From positions 301,001 to 365,000 of the forward strand of contig NZ_CP092831.1 in the NCBI RefSeq assembly GCF_022531965.1: a stretch of DNA of 64,000 bases, in the 5' to 3' direction. The translations under genes were made by a program, and so were the position numbers. Below, in pieces: positions 52,312 to 62,922 of this stretch; positions within the stretch are counted from its first letter, which is position 1, and every line of letters begins with the position of its first letter. The notes below the pieces were generated by a model that made no database searches, was not told the origin of the DNA, and saw only the letters and a program-made list of their open reading frames with translations. Source of the DNA: Paenibacillus peoriae (lineage in GTDB: Bacteria; Bacillota; Bacilli; Paenibacillales; Paenibacillaceae).

Positions 52312-53166
52312 GTGAGAACAGCTGTTCAGCAAGCCCGCGCCAATACGCGCAGTGGTGAAAAAACATTTCAATGGTTCGTGGCGACTCTCCTGACCGTGGG
52401 AGGTCTGTTGATGGTGCTGCCTTTTGCGTGGATGATTTTATCCTCCTTTAAGACTGAGGGCGAGGTAACCCAAATTCCCCCGACCATCTGGCCGCAGCAT
52501 TTTACACTGGATAATTTTAAATTACTATTCGATAGCATGGCTTTTGGAACCTATCTGACGAATACGCTGATCATTGTTTTAGCTTCTTTCTTCGGATTAT
52601 TCCTGAATGCCATGGCGGGTTATGGCTTTGCCAAATTCCAATTTAAAGGCAAAGGGTTTCTGTTCTATCTGGTACTAGCAACGATGATGATTCCAGGTCA
52701 AGTGACGATGATTCCCGTCTATTTGATTCTGAACCAGATGGGATTGACCAATTCCATGCTGGGGATTGTCCTGCCTGGATTGGTAGGCGCGTTCGCGATC
52801 TTCCTGTTCCGGCAGTTCATGTCCGATATCCCGGAAGAACTGCTGGAGGCGACACGTCTGGATGGAGCAGGGGAATTCCGCACTTTTTTACAAATTGTGC
52901 TGCCCATTTCGACGCCAATTATCGCAGTACAGGCCATCCTGACCTTCATCGGTGGATGGAACAGCTTCTTGTGGCCACTCATTATTGCGAACGATGAGAA
53001 GCTGTACACCTTGTCCGTCGGACTGTCACTGCTCAAGGGACAGAACGAAAGCCAATTTGCCCTGCAAATGGCAGGTTCGACCTTCATGGTCGTTCCGATC
53101 ATGATTATCTTCATTGTTTTCCAAAAGTATATTATTGAGAACTATACGATTTCGGGGATTAAGTAA
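52312..53166 (+). CDS. Sugar ABC transporter permease (MalG-type)
   Basis: A 284-residue permease with six hydrophobic segments and EAA-type loop EELLEATRLDGAGEFRTFLQI. The start GTG at 52312 has AGAGAGG at 8 nt; ATG at 52306 and GTG at 52303 are alternatives too close to the ribosome site. It completes the importer; a terminator follows. Confidence 0.9.
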   Translation: MRTAVQQARANTRSGEKTFQWFVATLLTVGGLLMVLPFAWMILSSFKTEGEVTQIPPTIWPQHFTLDNFKLLFDSMAFGTYLTNTLIIVLASFFGLFLNAMAGYGFAKFQFKGKGFLFYLVLATMMIPGQVTMIPVYLILNQMGLTNSMLGIVLPGLVGAFAIFLFRQFMSDIPEELLEATRLDGAGEFRTFLQIVLPISTPIIAVQAILTFIGGWNSFLWPLIIANDEKLYTLSVGLSLLKGQNESQFALQMAGSTFMVVPIMIIFIVFQKYIIENYTISGIK

Positions 53167-53195
53167 TAGTTTAATACGTAAATTGATAAACAAAA

Positions 53196-53245
53196 AAAAC
53201 GGAGGACTTCAAAGTTTAATCCAAAGAAGCCCTCCGTTTTTTGTG
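53196..53245 (+). terminator. Terminator of the sugar-importer operon
   Basis: AAAACGGAGG pairs with CCTCCGTTTT, with an inner CTTC/GAAG stem and a T-rich tail. Confidence 0.85.
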
Positions 53246-53507
53246 TTTTTGTTTTATAGAAAAATTAGAAAATCCCGGCCCGCTCACATTCATTCTAAAA
53301 AGTTGCGGCCTCCAGAATCATTAGGGTATGCATTACATTAACAACGACCGGCTTTTTTCGGCAAAGAAAACTATGCTTTTATTATATTTAATTGAAAATA
53401 TTTCAAAATAGTAGGTTAACAAATTTTACACAATTACCTCAAAAAAAGTATGGAGTGTAACGAAAAAAATGATTATATTGGAAAAGAAATAAAAAAATAT
53501 AAAAAAT
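53246..53507. other. AT-rich upstream region of the ranthipeptide cluster
   Basis: No gene seen. It holds the palindrome TTGAAAATATTTCAA at 53393-53407, a candidate regulator site. The promoter of the cluster is probably in 53400-53500 but no consensus -35/-10 pair is clear. Confidence 0.5.
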
Positions 53508-53520
53508 GAGGTGAATCAAA

Positions 53521-53676
53521 TTGTTCGATCCTGTTAACCAAGCAGCTGAAGGCAGTGTTTCTCCTATGACGTGTGTTTTTTGTGATACACGTGATCGTTG
53601 TGTAGGTTGTGATGCTACCGATTGGTTTTGTAGCAAAGAAAGTGGTCATTGGTGTACTAATAATGATAGCGATTAA
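53521..53676 (+). CDS. papA: Six-cysteine ranthipeptide (freyrasin-type) precursor peptide
   Basis: A 51-residue precursor starting at TTG (53521) with GAGGTGA at 6 nt; an upstream ATG is followed at once by a stop. The N-terminal 17 residues (FDPVNQAAEGSVSPM) are a leader, and the C-terminal part has six Cys (residues 18, 21, 27, 30, 37 and 45). Cys-x3-Asp pairs occur for Cys18/Asp22, Cys21/Asp25, Cys27/Asp31, Cys30/Asp34 and Cys45/Asp49, the freyrasin arrangement of Cys to Asp beta-carbon thioethers. Cys37 has Ser at that position and Glu40 at +3. The maturase gene lies 115 bp downstream. Confidence 0.85.
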   Translation: MFDPVNQAAEGSVSPMTCVFCDTRDRCVGCDATDWFCSKESGHWCTNNDSD

Positions 53677-53725
53677 TTAAAGTAAAACTTGCAACGATAG
53701 GGCTTTCAAACACAGATAGTCAATT

Positions 53726-53767
53726 AGGAGGTCTGGGAACTAATCTTCTTGGACTTCCTCCTATTTT
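53726..53767 (+). terminator. Hairpin between precursor and maturase genes
   Basis: AGGAGG at 53726-53731 pairs with CCTCCT at 53757-53762, followed by ATTTTG. It probably stops or pauses many transcripts, giving far more precursor peptide than enzyme. Confidence 0.6.
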
Positions 53768-53791
53768 GTAACTTTGAGAGGATGATTAATA

Positions 53792-55210
53792 GTGATTAGT
53801 GCTCCATTTGAAAAAAATCCCGTCAAAATCATAGAACAAAATGAAAAGTTATACTTATACAATATAGAAACAAATGGGCTTTTTCAGATTGATGATGTCG
53901 TAGTAGACATATGTAATAGTGAAGGTAAGGAAATTGAAGAAATATATGAATTACTTAAGCATCGTTCTAGTAGAGAAGAGGTAGATAGGTTATTAGCTAG
54001 TCTGAAGGAAGCATCGGTTATATATAATAAAGATTTGTCTATTCAAAAGGAATGTAAAAGTTGCAATGATGAGCAAGTAAGTCTATCATCTATAATCCTT
54101 ATGCTGGTTCAAGAGTGTAATCTAAGATGCTCTTATTGTTATGGAGGAGACGGAGAATATAATGATCGAGGACGCATGGACACAGAGACCGCTTTAAAAG
54201 CAGTTGATTATCTGTTTAATCATTCTGGCGAAGAAGAACTGAATATTTGTTTTTTTGGAGGGGAGCCACTTCTGAACATTGAAGTTATTAAAGAAGTTGT
54301 AGCCTACACTAAGCTAAAACAAGAAAAATCAAATAAACGTGTTACATATAGTATGACAACGAACGGCACCTTGATTTCCAAAGAAATTGAAAACTTCTTA
54401 TTAGATCATCATGTTTCTATTCAGATAAGTCTAGATGGTGATCAAATGACGCACGATTTCAATCGATATTATCAGAACAGAAAAGGTACCTATGAAATCA
54501 TTTTAAATAGAACGGAAAGTTTAAGAAAAAAAGGTGTCATAACAGCAAGAGCTACGATTTCACCAGTACAATTGGATATAACACATACACTTACACATTT
54601 AATGGAGATTGGTATCCGCCATGTTGCGATGTATCCTGCAGTCGAGATGCTTAGTGAGGAAGACTTTGAGAAGTATGCACAGGAATTCACCAAATTGGTT
54701 GTTCATTTTGAATCTTTGCTTCAGGCTAAAAAGTATGGGGAAGCACGTCAGATATCGAACATTCTAAAATACTTGAAGATGATTCATTCTTCTTCTAAGC
54801 GAAATTATTTTTGTGGGGCGGTCTCGCATATGCTTGCCGTTGATGTGCATGGTAATCTTTATCCTTGTCAACGATTTGTTAATGAAAAGGATTACTCTTT
54901 AGGAAATGTAAGGGAAGGGATGGATGTGAGAAAGAAGAGTAGCTTGCTTAGTGAGATGCGTTTAGAGAAGAGAACTGTATGTGGAGAATGTTGGGCTAAG
55001 AATCTATGTGGTGGAGGTTGTCCTCAAGAAAATATGGTGCTTAGTGGTTCGATTAATGAGCCAGTGGATAGATACTGTAACTTTACTCGTAGTGCAATAA
55101 TGGATTGTATGAAATTGTATTTGCGATTAACTAAAGAAGACAAGAAAAACCTGTTCTCTGCTAAGCGGCAGCGAGAGCAATTATTGGAGGATGTCTCATT
55201 TGACAATTGA
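53792..55210 (+). CDS. papB: Radical SAM/SPASM thioether synthase for the precursor peptide (PapB-like)
   Basis: Maturase of 472 residues. The N-terminal 80 residues resemble a PqqD-like peptide-recognition domain. The radical SAM Cys set is Cys109, Cys113 and Cys116 in QECNLRCSYCYG. The C-terminal SPASM domain binds auxiliary iron-sulfur clusters: Cys in FCGAVSHM, YPCQRF, VCGECWAKNLCGGGCPQ and YCNF. This domain order is that of SCIFF/ranthipeptide maturases, which join Cys sulfur to carbons of acceptor residues. The start is GTG at 53792. The gene overlaps the ATPase gene. It would act in the cytoplasm on the 51-residue precursor. Confidence 0.88.
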   Translation: MISAPFEKNPVKIIEQNEKLYLYNIETNGLFQIDDVVVDICNSEGKEIEEIYELLKHRSSREEVDRLLASLKEASVIYNKDLSIQKECKSCNDEQVSLSSIILMLVQECNLRCSYCYGGDGEYNDRGRMDTETALKAVDYLFNHSGEEELNICFFGGEPLLNIEVIKEVVAYTKLKQEKSNKRVTYSMTTNGTLISKEIENFLLDHHVSIQISLDGDQMTHDFNRYYQNRKGTYEIILNRTESLRKKGVITARATISPVQLDITHTLTHLMEIGIRHVAMYPAVEMLSEEDFEKYAQEFTKLVVHFESLLQAKKYGEARQISNILKYLKMIHSSSKRNYFCGAVSHMLAVDVHGNLYPCQRFVNEKDYSLGNVREGMDVRKKSSLLSEMRLEKRTVCGECWAKNLCGGGCPQENMVLSGSINEPVDRYCNFTRSAIMDCMKLYLRLTKEDKKNLFSAKRQREQLLEDVSFDN

Positions 55211-56078
55211 TATTCAAGCTTTAAGTAAGTCATATGGTTCTCACCAAGTACTTAACGAGCTTCATTTCCACATTGATAATGGTATATTCGGACTGCTCGG
55301 AGACAATGGGGCGGGTAAGACCACTTTAATGAAAATTCTTGCCACTTTACTTAGATTCGACCGAGGGGAAGTTGAAATATTCGGATATTCTTTGAAAAAA
55401 GAACCGGATGCTATTCGTTCTTTACTGGGTTACTTGCCGCAGCATTTTGATTTTTTTCCAAATGTAACGATTTTGGAATCTATGAACTATTTTGCGGCTT
55501 TAAAAGGTATTCAAGGTAAACGTCATATTCAAGAGGAGACATCACAGCGATTAATTGAGGTGGGGCTTATCGATCAAGTTCATAAAAAAATAAAACAGCT
55601 GTCTGGGGGAATGAAGCAGCGCTTAGGAATTGCCCAAGCTATGTTAGGACAGCCTAAGTTGTTAATTGTTGATGAGCCTACGGTTGGACTGGACCCCAAA
55701 GAGCGAATTGCTTTTCGAAACTTGCTTCAGAATTATGGAGAAGGTCGGATTATATTGTTATCTACTCATATTGTTCCTGACGTTTCAAGCACATGTGACA
55801 AACTACTCGTTTTAAAAGAAGGCCGTAATCTGTATCAAGGGGCAATAGACGATATGATTCGAACTGTCGAGGGTAAAGTATGGTTGGTTGATGTTGGTAA
55901 ACATCAATTAGAACAATTAAGCCAACAAGCTCGAATCACCTCCATTGTACGGAAGGAAGGAAGAATTCAGGCTCGATTATTGTGTAACCATCCTCCAGAT
56001 TGTTGTACGGAAGTCACACCTGAAACGGCTAATCTTGAGGATGCGTATCTGTACATTTCCGATCCAGAGGAGAGTTAG
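55200..56078 (+). CDS. ABC transporter ATP-binding protein of the ranthipeptide cluster
   Basis: ATPase of 292 residues. Walker A LLGDNGAGKTTLM, signature LSGGMKQRLG, Walker B LLIVDEPTVGLDP, H-loop STHIVPD, as in CcmA/NatA-type ATPases. The C-terminal 70 residues are divergent. The start is TTG at 55200 with GGAGG at 9 nt; ATG at 55191 would touch the ribosome site. It partners with the two membrane proteins next to it, forming an exporter or an immunity pump. Confidence 0.9.
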   Translation: MTIDIQALSKSYGSHQVLNELHFHIDNGIFGLLGDNGAGKTTLMKILATLLRFDRGEVEIFGYSLKKEPDAIRSLLGYLPQHFDFFPNVTILESMNYFAALKGIQGKRHIQEETSQRLIEVGLIDQVHKKIKQLSGGMKQRLGIAQAMLGQPKLLIVDEPTVGLDPKERIAFRNLLQNYGEGRIILLSTHIVPDVSSTCDKLLVLKEGRNLYQGAIDDMIRTVEGKVWLVDVGKHQLEQLSQQARITSIVRKEGRIQARLLCNHPPDCCTEVTPETANLEDAYLYISDPEES

Positions 56079-56082
56079 CAGA

Positions 56083-56772
56083 ATGGGACAAGTAATCAGA
56101 GCCCTAGTTCAATTTGAAATTTTACTTTTGAAGAAAAGTATAGTGTTTTTTATAGCACTAACGTTTTCTTGTTTTTTAATTCCTTTATTTTTATATCTAG
56201 GAGCAGGGAATAAGAATAACGAGTTATGGATATTTTTGCATCATGGACAAATGTTCTTTACCATATTATTAATGCCGTTGATGTATTCTGTTCTTTATGA
56301 TGGCGAGAAGCAAAAAATGATCTCTTCTGTTATTATGCCTAAATTGCATAAAGGAGCCCAATATTTTTATTGTAAGAGTTGTGTATTATGGGGAGTGGTT
56401 TGCTTATTTCAGTTTGTCGCTTTAGCTATGATTTGTGTAGTTCAATGGACGACTCATGGTAAGGCTCCATTCTTGACACTGCTTCATCTAACAGTAGCGG
56501 GTGTAGCAACTATGGGATATTCTGTTCAAGTTACCGTCATATTGAACTTGCTCTTACGTAAACAACTGTATGTGAACATTGTAATGCTCGTCTACCTTTT
56601 AACCAGTATTACTATCAACTTGCCCTACATTTCAATCTGGTTTAATCCAGATTGGATTATTTCCAACTTCTTTACACGTTCGTTTGCTTTCGGGCGAATA
56701 TCCCTATTTTTGCTTATGTGGGTATTGATGAAAGTCAGTAATCATCTATGGATGGCGAGGGTACAAGAATGA
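56083..56772 (+). CDS. ABC-2-type membrane protein of the ranthipeptide cluster
   Basis: A 229-residue protein with six hydrophobic segments. ATG at 56083 follows GAGGAGAG, 4 nt after the ATPase stop; the frame extends upstream within the ATPase gene but is not used. It overlaps the next gene (ATGA). It is one half of the ABC-2-type export channel. AT-rich codon use matches the rest of the cluster. Confidence 0.85.
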   Translation: MGQVIRALVQFEILLLKKSIVFFIALTFSCFLIPLFLYLGAGNKNNELWIFLHHGQMFFTILLMPLMYSVLYDGEKQKMISSVIMPKLHKGAQYFYCKSCVLWGVVCLFQFVALAMICVVQWTTHGKAPFLTLLHLTVAGVATMGYSVQVTVILNLLLRKQLYVNIVMLVYLLTSITINLPYISIWFNPDWIISNFFTRSFAFGRISLFLLMWVLMKVSNHLWMARVQE

Positions 56773-57920
56773 ATGGAATTATAGTTCGTTTCTGGCTGCA
56801 GCTTTTGCTCCGAAGAGAACAAGCAGTAACCTTGCTCGTTTCCTTTAGTGTGGTTGTTTTATTCAATTTAATAATGAATGAAGGTATTGCAATAACTTAT
56901 AGTGTTAACTTGCTATTTGTAGCTTTTTTTTCTTTGCAGATTGCGAGTATACATAATCGTAATCATACAGAGCCGTATATATATATTTCTGTCTTTCCTA
57001 ATTACCGTCTAATCACTTATCAGCTTTATGTTTCTTTAATTCTTTCGTTTCCTCTCTTGCTCATGATGGTAGGACTTTTATGGAAATCATTCGCTGATGT
57101 ATCATTATGGAATTTGGTTATCATTGTGTTTTTTACTAGTTTTTTTTCGTCGATGTTGGGTCTCTTGTTGGGGCAGGTAGTAAGGCATTATGGGTTGGCC
57201 TTCACTTTTCTCATTGCTTTTTACCTTCCCATAGGTTTAGTTTCCTGGTCTTTTAATGAAAAATTTCGTTACATATCTCCTGTAGTAAATATATTCAACC
57301 CCTATTTGATCAACTGGCGAAATCTCTTTGGACTCTTAGGCTGTAGTTTATTATTTTACGGATTAGGCACATTGTTATCCAGTCGGCGCGGAGGTGGCAA
57401 AAAGTCTATAATCCCTTGGATCAGTATGGTCCTTGCTTGTAGTATACTGATTGGCGTATGGGGATATGAGAGGCTATTTAATGAGAATGTACAGACATCG
57501 TCGTTTCAAAAAATAACTGTGGGACAAACACAAGTAGAGTATAAGGGCATTAGTTCGTATCAGGCGAAGCAATTTGCCGCCCTCTTTGAAACGCTGTATC
57601 AAGTGGCTAAGAAAAAGGAGACACACCCGGTTCGCTATACCTTGCAAATCACCAGAATGCATTCCATGTCATCGTTCGAGCCGAAAATAATAGTACACCA
57701 TAATAATAAACTTCAAATTAATATTTATTCAAATAAGCTCTTAGAATTCAATCGTGGGATGGATTGGGCGAGTAAGTGGATTGATTACATTTTGCCGCAA
57801 ACGCCCCACTTGTCCAATGAGCAAGTTAACGCTTTTAAACGACTAAAAAATGACATTATTATGGAGGTTAGAGAAAAAAATCCTGGAAATGTCTATACAC
57901 TTCAGGAGAGTGAAAGCTAA
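56769..57920 (+). CDS. Membrane protein with a C-terminal extracytoplasmic domain, ranthipeptide cluster
   Basis: A 383-residue protein with about six to seven hydrophobic segments in the first 240 residues, then a soluble domain of about 140 residues that should lie outside the membrane, containing QKITVGQTQVEYKGISSYQ and a mixed beta-alpha pattern. I recognise no family for this domain. ATG at 56769 follows GGCGAGGG and overlaps the previous stop. It is the second channel protein of the ABC set; the external domain could bind or process the mature peptide (inference). Confidence 0.8.
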   Translation: MNGIIVRFWLQLLLRREQAVTLLVSFSVVVLFNLIMNEGIAITYSVNLLFVAFFSLQIASIHNRNHTEPYIYISVFPNYRLITYQLYVSLILSFPLLLMMVGLLWKSFADVSLWNLVIIVFFTSFFSSMLGLLLGQVVRHYGLAFTFLIAFYLPIGLVSWSFNEKFRYISPVVNIFNPYLINWRNLFGLLGCSLLFYGLGTLLSSRRGGGKKSIIPWISMVLACSILIGVWGYERLFNENVQTSSFQKITVGQTQVEYKGISSYQAKQFAALFETLYQVAKKKETHPVRYTLQITRMHSMSSFEPKIIVHHNNKLQINIYSNKLLEFNRGMDWASKWIDYILPQTPHLSNEQVNAFKRLKNDIIMEVREKNPGNVYTLQESES

Positions 57921-57978
57921 ATAGCGAGATTTCGTGAAGAACCGATAATAATAGATATAAAAGAAAGGGATGGAATGC

Positions 57979-59826
57979 ATGGAACGTGAGGCAGACCATG
58001 TGAATATAAGAGCTATATTTCATTCATTCCAATATTGGCCGAAGTTAACTAAGTTATTATGGAGTACAGAACCTATCTACTTTATTATCATTATTTTTGG
58101 CTATCTACTAAAAGGAATACTCCCGATTGCTAACCTTCTCTCCATACAGTATTTGGTTTCTGAATTAGAGACTAGCACGGTATGGCATAAGCTTCAAATA
58201 AGCGCAGTTTTCCCTGTAATTATCGTGATGTTTTCTAGTTTGCTTATTTCAAGTTTAATTGAATATTCTGATAAATTGTTCCAAATTTCACTGATAAATA
58301 AATTACAAACATTAATAGTATCACAAACATCGACATTTAATCTTGCGGATTTTGAAAGTCCGCAAGTACATAATCAACTCAAAAGAGTACAAAACGACTC
58401 AATAGATAGACCTATTCAGATCTATAAAGAACTCATTAATTTGCTAAGTTCCATGGTTACGTTATGCTCTAGTATCGCCATTTTAATAGCATTCAGATGG
58501 TGGGTCTTACTCATTCTTGTTGTTTCTCCACTAGCATCTTTTTATTCTTTATTAAGGTTCACACAAATTCAATATGTGGCCAAGAAAAAACGGGCTCCTT
58601 TACAACGTAAATCCAGGTATATTAATTACTTATTGACTAATGAGAAGTCTTTTAAAGAAGTCGTATTGTATCAACTTAGTGACTACTTTACAGCAAAATA
58701 TAAGGGCATTTTTGATGTTTTCTACAAAGAGGATAAGTATTTAGCCAAAAAACGTATTACGTTATATTTGTCTTTTCAAGTAATAAGTACATTATTTATA
58801 TCCATTGCTTTGATTATGATTATACAAATAGCATGGAAAGAAGAATTTCTCGTTGGCAGTATTTATGCATTAGTTCAAGCAGTATTATTAGCTAATCAAA
58901 ATATTAACACAGTATCTCAAGGATTGATTTCATTATGTGATCATAATCTGTATTTAGATGAATTATTCGCTTTTTTTAACATAAAACATAAACAAGACAG
59001 TTCTAGTATGTTGCTAAGAGAATCAGGTATACAAGCTGATTCAACGATAGAAAGCATAGAATTTAAAAATGTTTCATTTGCCTACCCAGATCAAAAAGAA
59101 TGGGCTCTCAAAGATATAAGTTTTAAAATGAGGCGTGGTGAATCTCTTGCTCTAGTGGGCAGGAATGGATCAGGGAAAACAACTGTGATAAAACTTTTAA
59201 CGGGATTATATGATGACTTTAAAGGAGATATTTTAATCAATTCAATCTCGATTCGAAATTATAATAAAGAAATGCTTTACAAGAAAGTAGGCGTTATATT
59301 TCAGGATTTTGTTCAATTCGACTTTTCAGTAAGAGAAAATATAGGTTTTGGCAGCATAGAACATCTTGAATTTGATACTAGGATATGGGAATCGGCACAA
59401 TATACAGGAGTAGATAAGGTAATACGACATTTTCCTAATCAATTAGAACAACAGCTAGGAAGAAACTTTGAAGGGGGTATACAGCTTTCAGGAGGGCAGT
59501 GGCAAAAGATAGCTATATCCAGAGCGCTCTTCAAAGATGCTGACGTTTACGTATTGGATGAGCCTAGTTCATTTCTTGATCCAGAGTCAGAAAAACAAGT
59601 ATTTCGCCAATTTCAAAATTTTGTTATTCATAGGCTTTGCCTCTACATTTCTCATCGTTATACCTCTGTTCTATATGCAGGTAAAATTTTAGTTTTGGAT
59701 AAGGGTCAGATTATAGAAGAAGGAACTCACCAAGAACTAATTGAAAGTCGAGGGCTTTACTATGATTTATTTTCTGATGAAATTAATACATTCCAGAAAG
59801 CGTTAGTTACTAATGATACACGCTAA
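57979..59826 (+). CDS. Full-size ABC exporter, ranthipeptide cluster
   Basis: A 615-residue exporter: membrane domain of six helices (about 30-330) then an ATPase domain (about 345-600) with Walker A LVGRNGSGKTTV, signature QLSGGQWQKIA, Walker B VYVLDEPSSFLDP and H-loop YISHRY. It has no N-terminal C39 peptidase domain, so it does not trim the leader itself. The start is ATG at 57979, with the ATG at 57970 too close to the ribosome site. The organisation suggests it exports the mature or leader-bearing peptide. Followed by a terminator at 59930. Confidence 0.9.
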   Translation: MEREADHVNIRAIFHSFQYWPKLTKLLWSTEPIYFIIIIFGYLLKGILPIANLLSIQYLVSELETSTVWHKLQISAVFPVIIVMFSSLLISSLIEYSDKLFQISLINKLQTLIVSQTSTFNLADFESPQVHNQLKRVQNDSIDRPIQIYKELINLLSSMVTLCSSIAILIAFRWWVLLILVVSPLASFYSLLRFTQIQYVAKKKRAPLQRKSRYINYLLTNEKSFKEVVLYQLSDYFTAKYKGIFDVFYKEDKYLAKKRITLYLSFQVISTLFISIALIMIIQIAWKEEFLVGSIYALVQAVLLANQNINTVSQGLISLCDHNLYLDELFAFFNIKHKQDSSSMLLRESGIQADSTIESIEFKNVSFAYPDQKEWALKDISFKMRRGESLALVGRNGSGKTTVIKLLTGLYDDFKGDILINSISIRNYNKEMLYKKVGVIFQDFVQFDFSVRENIGFGSIEHLEFDTRIWESAQYTGVDKVIRHFPNQLEQQLGRNFEGGIQLSGGQWQKIAISRALFKDADVYVLDEPSSFLDPESEKQVFRQFQNFVIHRLCLYISHRYTSVLYAGKILVLDKGQIIEEGTHQELIESRGLYYDLFSDEINTFQKALVTNDTR

Positions 59827-59929
59827 CTGTGTATAGGGATTCTGGCATATATTTGGGCTGGGAACAGTATTATTTTTTACCTAGAGAAGTAGACTATGTA
59901 GAATATACGAGTCATAGTCACATACGAAC

Positions 59930-59967
59930 AGCGGAGCTTCTCTTAGGAAGAGGGGCTCCGCTTTTTT
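59930..59967 (+). terminator. Terminator of the ranthipeptide cluster
   Basis: AGCGGAGC pairs with GCTCCGCT, followed by six T residues. The rest of 59827-60275 has no gene I support. Confidence 0.85.
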
Positions 59968-60275
59968 GCTTTCATGGATAAATTTATATATGAGTTAGAC
60001 AATATTGATGAGACAATGTACGAAGTTTTCTTTTCAGTCTATAGATTCGAGTCGTTGTAGCCGTAACCGAAATATTATATTTGATAGCAAGGAAGACACA
60101 GGCAGCGTATATTGGGAGAGGTTGCTTTATATATGACAGCTTATACGAAACGATAAGGTACTGCTTAGCAGTGGAACAAGAAAGAATAAAGATTTGTGAA
60201 AATAATGAAAAAACATACAGAATAAACCGATATATTTCTAGAATCACTTATCAGAAAAGAATTGGAGGTTTTAGG

Positions 60276-61058
60276 ATGAATGTATCATTTACATCATCTC
60301 AGCAATCGCCGTTCCGCATCGCAGATAACAACCCACTTGAATCACGGCATCCCCTTTCCAGTCAGACAGAAAGGAAGAGTATAGGTAAACCGCAAAATAA
60401 GGTTATTCAACAATTGACAGAGCAAAAGCAAAATTTGATGGAGAGGCGTTCGGACTATATAAGTAATGCTCTAAAACGTGGCCTCGGTCTGGAGGCTGTA
60501 AAAGCTGAAATGGAAAAGATAGATATGCAGATTCAACAAATTGACGAGAACATTCAGAAACAGTTAATGGAAGAACAAAAAAAAGCTTTTAGCATGGATG
60601 AGGAAAGTCAAAGAGAAGCTCAGGAAGGTAAAAAGGAACAATATACGCACAAGACTGCAGAGGAGCAAAAGCAAAGTCTAATCACATATACGATGCATAG
60701 TATTGTGTCAGCAAACAACGAGTTAAAGAATTCGAAAATCAATAAAATGGCACAAATTACGTTGAAAAGCGAAGCTAAAGGTTGGGAAAATACTAATCCT
60801 GCAAGATCAGCTACTTTACGTGAGAAGGCAGAAGGCCTTGATGGTAAAATTATGGAGATTGCCTTGAACATCAACGAGCGCATTAGTGAAGCAGTGAATA
60901 AGGAACCTACGATAACAGATCGAGATGAACCAAAGGATGAGAAGGAAGCAAGTATAGAGGTTGGTAGGAGGTGGACTGAACAAGAGCTCCATGCCTATAT
61001 GGACTCAGCTAAAGACAAAGCTAAGACTGCAGGTGTGAAGGTGAACATTGCTGTCTGA
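60276..61058 (+). CDS. Hypothetical coiled-coil protein
   Basis: A 260-residue, charged, soluble protein with no signal peptide or membrane helix. Residues about 40-110 are Gln/Glu/Lys-rich (LTEQKQNLMERRSDYISNALKR and QIQQIDENIQKQL) and predicted to be helical coiled coil; a second helical stretch runs about 115-200. ATG at 60276 follows TTGGAGG; an upstream frame to 60081 is unlikely. Not recognised; it resembles FlxA-like or phage/secretion-related helical proteins only loosely. It may be separate from the ranthipeptide cluster, since a terminator lies between. Confidence 0.75.
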   Translation: MNVSFTSSQQSPFRIADNNPLESRHPLSSQTERKSIGKPQNKVIQQLTEQKQNLMERRSDYISNALKRGLGLEAVKAEMEKIDMQIQQIDENIQKQLMEEQKKAFSMDEESQREAQEGKKEQYTHKTAEEQKQSLITYTMHSIVSANNELKNSKINKMAQITLKSEAKGWENTNPARSATLREKAEGLDGKIMEIALNINERISEAVNKEPTITDRDEPKDEKEASIEVGRRWTEQELHAYMDSAKDKAKTAGVKVNIAV

Positions 61059-61089
61059 TCGGGATATTATGTGTATAGTACGGAAATTA

Positions 61090-61138
61090 GGAGGGTGCTT
61101 TCAGACGAACGCTATCGTTCAAAGAAGCACCTCCGTTT
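61090..61138 (+). terminator. Terminator-like hairpin
   Basis: GGAGGGTGCTT pairs with AAGCACCTCC (one bulge), with an inner GAACG/CGTTC stem. The following 61139-61407 is AT-rich, with no gene seen; it holds the leader of the GH51 gene. Confidence 0.7.
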
Positions 61139-61407
61139 ACTCTAATGGAAATATGAACAGCAGGACAACTATTATTATTTGGTAAAGTGGTTATTCACTC
61201 AATAAGTTTGTTTATAAAACAAAATATTTAGAAATACGTAACCAATTGCTTATCGTTTATTATAAATATTAATAAATATATTAAGTATTTAATGATAATA
61301 TTGACTATGATAAATAGGGTGTGTTATATTAAAACCGTAAATAAAACGGCTTCTTAATCTTGGTGGTAGAACGGATTTTATTTTCGCATTCAGAGAGGAT
61401 GGTTTAG

Positions 61408-62922
<1,515 letters not shown>

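What the first reader, a model, noticed from the sequence alone, without database searches (positions are those of the whole stretch)
53521..59826. Freyrasin-type ranthipeptide cluster with an easily missed TTG-started precursor
A 51-residue, six-cysteine precursor precedes a radical SAM/SPASM thioether synthase and five transport genes, all read rightward. The precursor starts at TTG and is under 60 codons, so simple gene calls would miss it. Cys-x3-Asp repeats match the pattern I recall for freyrasin from Paenibacillus polymyxa, made by PapB, in which Cys sulfur is joined to Asp beta-carbons.
Basis: partly seen in the sequence, partly recalled or inferred. Interest (0 to 1): 0.85.

Follow-up and report, generated by a model that had tools for sequence, protein, structure and literature searches.

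The report
Variant freyrasin-type thioether peptide gene cluster
A Paenibacillus bacterium carries a small gene cluster that should make a cysteine-stapled peptide related to freyrasin, but with one staple moved and probably built on glutamate with a changed ring size, so it is a variant of a known natural-product class rather than a new one.

Summary
The 51-residue, six-Cys, TTG-started precursor (53521-53676) is real: three close relatives keep the frame and the TTG, others have ATG at the same place. The maturase (53792-55210) passes NCBI's PapB equivalog cut-off (430.9 vs 340 bits) and fails the SCIFF one. But there are four transport genes, not five, and only five of six Cys have Asp at +4.

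The precursor scores below the freyrasin family cut-off (23.3 vs 30). Aligned with freyrasin, it keeps freyrasin rings 2-6, lacks ring 1, and has an extra Cys (Cys37) before the last ring. In 13 of 13 distinct precursors of this type the fifth Cys has exactly one acidic residue within seven positions, always Glu, at +3 (here), +4 or +5. Freyrasin PapB is reported to accept Glu and 1-5 spacer residues. I therefore predict six thioethers: five Cys-Asp (S-Cβ) and, less surely, one Cys37-Glu40 (S-Cγ).

The cluster sits at a site that is empty in P. polymyxa G026 and holds another radical-SAM peptide cassette in several kin. New variant of a known kind; the chemistry is inferred, not shown.

The parts
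53508..53514 (+). ribosome-binding-like GAGGTGA, 6 nt before the TTG
   Evidence: read from sequence; same in two of three close relatives, one base different in the third
53521..53676 (+). precursor peptide gene, 51 aa, TTG start, six Cys
   Evidence: relatives; NF037957 23.3 bits, cut-off 30
53521..53571 (+). probable leader, residues 1-17, with Asn6 invariant in the 11 aligned precursors; true cleavage site unknown
   Evidence: alignment A2; proposed role of a leader Asn from a PMC9413430 passage
53572..53673 (+). probable core, residues 18-51: Cys18-Asp22, Cys21-Asp25, Cys27-Asp31, Cys30-Asp34, Cys45-Asp49, and Cys37-Glu40 (least sure)
   Evidence: motifs; links inferred from PapB chemistry
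53726..53759 (+). hairpin between precursor and maturase genes, then T-rich; possible attenuator (inferred)
   Evidence: weak (z -1.80, 12 of 200 shuffles fold as well); largely kept in four genomes
53792..55210 (+). PapB-family radical SAM/SPASM maturase, 472 aa, GTG start
   Evidence: NF047865 430.9/340; PF04055, PF13186; model and PDB match to CteB
55191..56078 (+). ABC transporter ATP-binding protein
   Evidence: PF00005; conserved beside the maturase in relatives
56083..56772 (+). probable permease partner of the ATPase
   Evidence: no Pfam or NCBIfam match; conserved gene order
56748..57920 (+). probable second permease with a conserved C-terminal part
   Evidence: no Pfam match; conserved in relatives; model poor, pLDDT 64.6
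57970..59826 (+). fused ABC exporter; no peptidase family among its matches
   Evidence: PF00005 is the only Pfam family above its cut-off with AAA_21; MsbA-type NCBIfam scores below cut-off
59930..59962 (+). terminator-like hairpin after the exporter
   Evidence: 4 such sites found, 3.8 expected in shuffles, so weak alone

Best explanation
A complete PapB-family ranthipeptide operon. The precursor's leader (Asn6 conserved) docks on the N-terminal domain of the maturase. The enzyme cleaves S-adenosylmethionine, takes a hydrogen from the acceptor side chain next to its carboxylate (near Arg361, the counterpart of PapB Arg372), and joins that carbon to the Cys sulfur. It makes five Cys-Asp S-Cβ links, including two crossing pairs (18-22 with 21-25, 27-31 with 30-34), and more likely than not (about 0.55) a sixth, Cys37-Glu40, S-Cγ, with two residues inside the ring. 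The fused ABC exporter secretes the peptide; the separate ATPase and two membrane proteins export it or protect the producer. Shown here: genes, family, conserved residues, conservation of the Glu. Inferred from studied PapB: the chemistry. Not known: leader protease, final product, activity.
For: PapB equivalog cut-off passed. All 3 radical-SAM Cys and 7 SPASM Cys invariant in 16 of 16 aligned maturases, chosen by me. Window R361 aligns with the R372 that PapB needs. Five Cys and five Asp of the core invariant in 11 of 11 aligned precursors, four of them freyrasin-type. Cys5 has one acid within +7, always Glu, in 13 of 13 distinct window-type precursors. PapB joins Cys to Glu, makes nested links and completes CX1D-CX5D substrates in vitro (PMC9413430: passages, section 7). 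Same order maturase-ATPase-membrane-membrane-exporter in six other genomes: G019, G061, G045, G240, G222 and Lysinibacillus boronitolerans.
Against: No product or activity is shown. Glu together with a two-residue spacer was not tested in what I read; a review says PapB is strict for C-x3-D (PMC8172795 passages), against the 2022 data. The 13 precursors are related, so the count is not 13 independent events. The precursor is under the freyrasin family cut-off. No leader peptidase was recognised in the operon.
Confidence: 0.85

Rival explanations
1. Only five thioethers form; Cys37 stays a free thiol, pairs in a disulfide, or is used in some other way.
For: Cys37 has no acid at +4, the spacing of every Cys in the 8 freyrasin-type precursors examined. 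The review text reports that C-x2-D mostly fails.
Against: Glu is kept after this Cys in 13 of 13 sequences while spacing varies; CX2D lies in the CX1-5D range that PapB completes in vitro.
Confidence: 0.35
2. The maturase makes another link type, for example alpha-carbon (sactipeptide) or Cys-Ser/His links.
For: The nearest solved structure is CteB, a SCIFF maturase, and the acceptor carbon cannot be read from sequence.
Against: Score above the PapB cut-off and below those of SCIFF, RumMC and StsB; acceptors are Asp/Glu as in PapB.
Confidence: 0.05
3. The cluster is a decaying remnant and makes nothing.
For: Copies at the same site are decayed in G018 and G027, and in G008 no maturase match is left beside the precursor.
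Against: All six genes are open here; the five larger ones are matched at 80-97% identity in G019, G061 and G045 (the G045 maturase frame is 462 aa, ending about 13 residues early). Precursor changes in three relatives spare every Cys, Asp and Glu.
Confidence: 0.06

Closest known systems
Freyrasin cluster (PapA/PapB), Paenibacillus polymyxa
   Same: PapB-family maturase (43% identity to P0008), M-[FL]-x-x-[VI]-N leader start, five-ring core C-x2-C-D-x2-D-x-C-x2-C-D-x2-D...C-x3-D, an ABC exporter next to the maturase
   Different: No first ring; extra Cys37 with Glu at +3; TTG start; below the freyrasin precursor cut-off; different ABC ATPase and membrane proteins
Uncharacterised PapB-family clusters of Lysinibacillus boronitolerans (L009), Paenibacillus sp. 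JJ-223 (L028), G041, G055
   Same: Moved sixth Cys with Glu; maturase with ATPase, two membrane proteins and an exporter
   Different: Glu at +5, not +3; 42-44% maturase identity; in JJ-223, G041 and G055 the exporter stands before the ATPase; not recovered as one clade with the window, though one clade is not rejected (p-AU 0.152)
SCIFF maturase CteB (PDB 5wgg)
   Different: TIGR03974 235.6 bits against cut-off 425

Membership tests
PapB family maturase (NF047865) | score above curated cut-off 340 | tested here: met
   430.9 bits
PapB family maturase (NF047865) | radical SAM CxxxCxxC and seven SPASM Cys | tested here: met
   invariant in 16 of 16 rows; which Cys are SPASM ligands is from recall of the motif
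PapB family maturase (NF047865) | essential Arg372 of PapB | tested here: met
   P0008 residue 372 is Arg in the same motif as window Arg361; essentiality from a PMC9413430 passage. That P0008 is the studied PapB was not checked
PapB family maturase (NF047865) | N-terminal leader-binding domain | tested here: inconclusive
   strands then helices at residues 6-79 in the model, CteB match from residue 9; not tested by its own profile
Freyrasin precursor family (NF037957) | score above curated cut-off 30 | tested here: not met
   23.3 bits; three freyrasin-type sequences 50.3-65.6
Freyrasin precursor family (NF037957) | six C-x3-D motifs | tested here: not met
   five of six
Ranthipeptide | thioether from Cys sulfur to a non-alpha carbon | not testable with these tools
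   needs mass spectrometry and NMR of the product
SCIFF maturase (TIGR03974) | score above cut-off 425 | tested here: not met
   235.6 bits

The most novel reading that the evidence does not exclude
A naturally occurring branch of PapB-type ranthipeptides uses Glu as acceptor for one ring (S-Cγ) and lets that ring's size change between lineages (C-x2-E, C-x3-E, C-x4-E), so that the spacing tolerance seen with PapB in vitro is used in nature; the window's peptide would carry the smallest of these rings.
Probability: 0.5. Interest if true: 0.55.

Novelty: new variant of a known kind. Interest (0 to 1): 0.42.

Why it matters
PapB is used as a peptide-stapling tool (PMC8566587, PMC9413430). A natural set of substrates in which one ring keeps its Glu but varies in size would show that acceptor and ring size can change in this family, gives a maturase to test for Glu preference, and shows that the current freyrasin precursor model misses part of the family.

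Tried and rejected
Rfam over 52500-61500: nothing at the gathering score. Promoter scan: 24 sites, 25.9 expected in shuffles, so no promoter is claimed. Intergenic hairpin: z -1.80, 12 of 200 shuffles fold as well; kept as weak. Model of the second membrane protein is poor (pLDDT 64.6) and was not searched. A joint clade of all Glu-ring maturases was not recovered; holding them together is not rejected (p-AU 0.152), so shared ancestry and convergence stay open. Second precursor copy in this genome: none at E 1. In the genome-contig scan 80 of 137 relatives were kept.

Rows left out of the count: P0124 (its core repeats the P. ottowii one); the second, five-Cys precursor of L008 (five C-x3-D, no ring 1); and the four- to six-Cys precursors of other PapB-family loci (L011, L012, L013, L015-L018, L021, L024, L026, L071, L117 and others), which fit neither type. 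Precursors were sought beside 34 loci and 22, some of them twice, by a filter on Cys and C-x3-[DE] or C-x2-C-D; several loci gave none.

The two founding freyrasin papers (Hudson 2019, Precord 2019) are not held. What I say of freyrasin comes from passages of PMC9413430 (plus its section 7), PMC8172795, PMC10470005 and PMC8326336.

On print: searches for freyrasin (16 papers), PapB with radical SAM, thioether and RiPP, ranthipeptide with Cys-Glu terms (20 of 28 listed), ranthipeptide with Paenibacillus, and two of PapB, ranthipeptide, Lysinibacillus listed no title or abstract start about this subgroup. I looked into seven papers, by passages or one section; supplements were not open to me.

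Full report
What is there. The window lies at 301001-365000 of a single-contig 5.84 Mb genome, a Paenibacillus by its nearest maturase (98% to Paenibacillus sp. LX16, P0001) and by kin (P. ottowii L006). At 53521-53676 a TTG-started ORF encodes a 51-residue peptide with six Cys; an in-frame TGA starts 9 nt before the TTG and GAGGTGA ends 6 nt before it. A maturase gene (53792-55210, GTG start), an ABC ATPase (55191-56078), two membrane proteins (56083-56772, 56748-57920) and a fused ABC exporter (57970-59826) follow on the same strand. That is four transport genes, not five. A hairpin lies between precursor and maturase and a terminator-like hairpin after the exporter; neither is strong statistically.

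The precursor is real. It is the only one of 494 ORFs of 30-100 aa in the window with at least three C-x3-D, and 5 of 200,000 residue shuffles reach its five. Three close relatives keep it: L006 (P. ottowii) has 4 synonymous and 5 non-synonymous codon changes, L143 (G061) 2 and 2, L007 (BJ-4) 1 and 0, none of the non-synonymous ones at a Cys, Asp or Glu. So selection shows in the spared residues, not in a low ratio. TTG is kept in those three. G018 reads Met there, and G222, G240 and the Lysinibacillus type start with ATG at the aligned place; the JJ-223 type has a Met there inside a longer frame.

What differs from freyrasin. The minimal PapA substrate in PMC9413430 carries CSANDA, as do G025 (L086) and P0127, so these served as freyrasin references (the paper numbers this Cys 19, my frame 20). 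In the alignment the window's Cys18, 21, 27, 30 and 45 with their Asp match freyrasin rings 2-6; freyrasin ring 1 is missing and Cys37 is inserted before the last ring. Across 13 distinct window-type precursors (two from decayed clusters, one cut short at residue 44), Cys5 has exactly one acid within +7, always Glu: +3 in 5, +4 in 2, +5 in 6. In 8 of 8 freyrasin-type precursors all six Cys have Asp at +4 (rows left out are named under Tried and rejected). One exception elsewhere: the decayed G008 peptide has Glu at +4 of its first Cys. NCBIfam freyrasin_like scores are 22.4-26.5 for four window-type sequences, 30.3 for Lysinibacillus and 50.3-65.6 for three freyrasin types, cut-off 30.

Mechanism. 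From PMC10470005 (passages): the 5'-deoxyadenosyl radical takes H from C3 of Asp, an auxiliary cluster binds the Cys thiol, and thioether formation returns one electron. From PMC9413430: Glu is accepted at its γ carbon and nested links form (passages), and CX1D to CX5D react to completion (section 7). PMC8172795 reports a strict C-x3-D need (passage); the two disagree, and the 2022 authors stress that their enzyme is highly active. On this basis five Cys-Asp links are likely and Cys37-Glu40 somewhat more likely than not; Glu with a two-residue spacer was not tested in what I read.

Distribution. PapB above cut-off: 15 of 394 Paenibacillaceae genomes. Precursor profile: 14 places in 13 of 394 genomes, 11 of window type and 3 of freyrasin type; G045 (BJ-4) has both. 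The profile did not find the four-Cys precursors of G205, G232 and G127, which also have PapB. In 398 genomes of the class, 8 (this one included) have a maturase match at E 1e-60 or better. The tree puts the window with L006, L007, L143, P0002, L140 and L141 (100/100), the Lysinibacillus/JJ-223 group apart (100/100), and freyrasin apart (92/100, 100/100 with fewer rows); long branches and open forks limit deeper reading.

Site. The upstream sugar permease was found in 13 of 14 genomes searched, not in G008. Next to it: this cluster in G000, G019, G061 and G045; decayed copies in G018 and G027; another radical-SAM peptide cassette in G007, G025, G062, G063 and G013, and in G018 beside its decayed copy; some 7.6 kb without a radical SAM match in G060; and in G026 nothing but the arabinofuranosidase 346 bases on. 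The other cassette is of CLI_3235/CcpM type in the two loci tested (L178, L177); its small precursor was not looked for in G062. Cluster G+C is 0.357, against 0.481 for some 10 kb to the left and 0.424 to the right. So the site appears to take interchangeable peptide cassettes. A pangenome paper lists freyrasin in 0 of 3 strains of its P. ottowii group, which includes type strain MS2379 (PMC11577871, passages), while an MS2379 contig holds this cluster (L006).

Limits. Everything about chemistry is by analogy. No leader protease was recognised in the operon; product and activity are unknown. Novelty in print was checked only in the open library (see Tried and rejected).

Noticed in passing
window 53167-61407 and L151, L171-L178: The gap between the sugar permease and the arabinofuranosidase looks like a hot spot for peptide cassettes: of 14 genomes, empty in one, this cluster in four, decayed in two, a CLI_3235/CcpM-like cassette in six (one of them beside a decayed copy), other DNA in one, permease not found in one.
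   Followed up: partly
L152 5427-6114 (G008): Freyrasin-like precursor with no maturase match beside it; a short frame looks like a maturase start fused to an exporter end (by eye).
   Followed up: partly
L022 / L154 (P. brasilensis, G007): PapB reading frame only 351 aa, lacking the N-terminal part, and no precursor found by my filter.
   Followed up: no
L011, L013, L117: PapB-family maturases next to short precursors with a four-Cys core (MFKQ[VI]NV...CIFCDYPKDNDCA[IV]CDGGK type), a further subgroup; the L011 one scores 10.8 on the freyrasin model.
   Followed up: no
L008, 5' of the maturase: Two tandem precursors in P. caseinilyticus, one with six C-x3-D and one with five and a Gly-rich stretch where ring 1 would be.
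   Followed up: no
window 56748-57920, C-terminal part: Conserved stretch with YSNK and EFN in a part with no Pfam family.
   Followed up: partly
window 60081-61058: Protein with no Pfam match (261-aa part tested) found by the site in G007, G018, G025, G027, G062 and G063, but not in the stretches taken from G013, G026 and G060.
   Followed up: no
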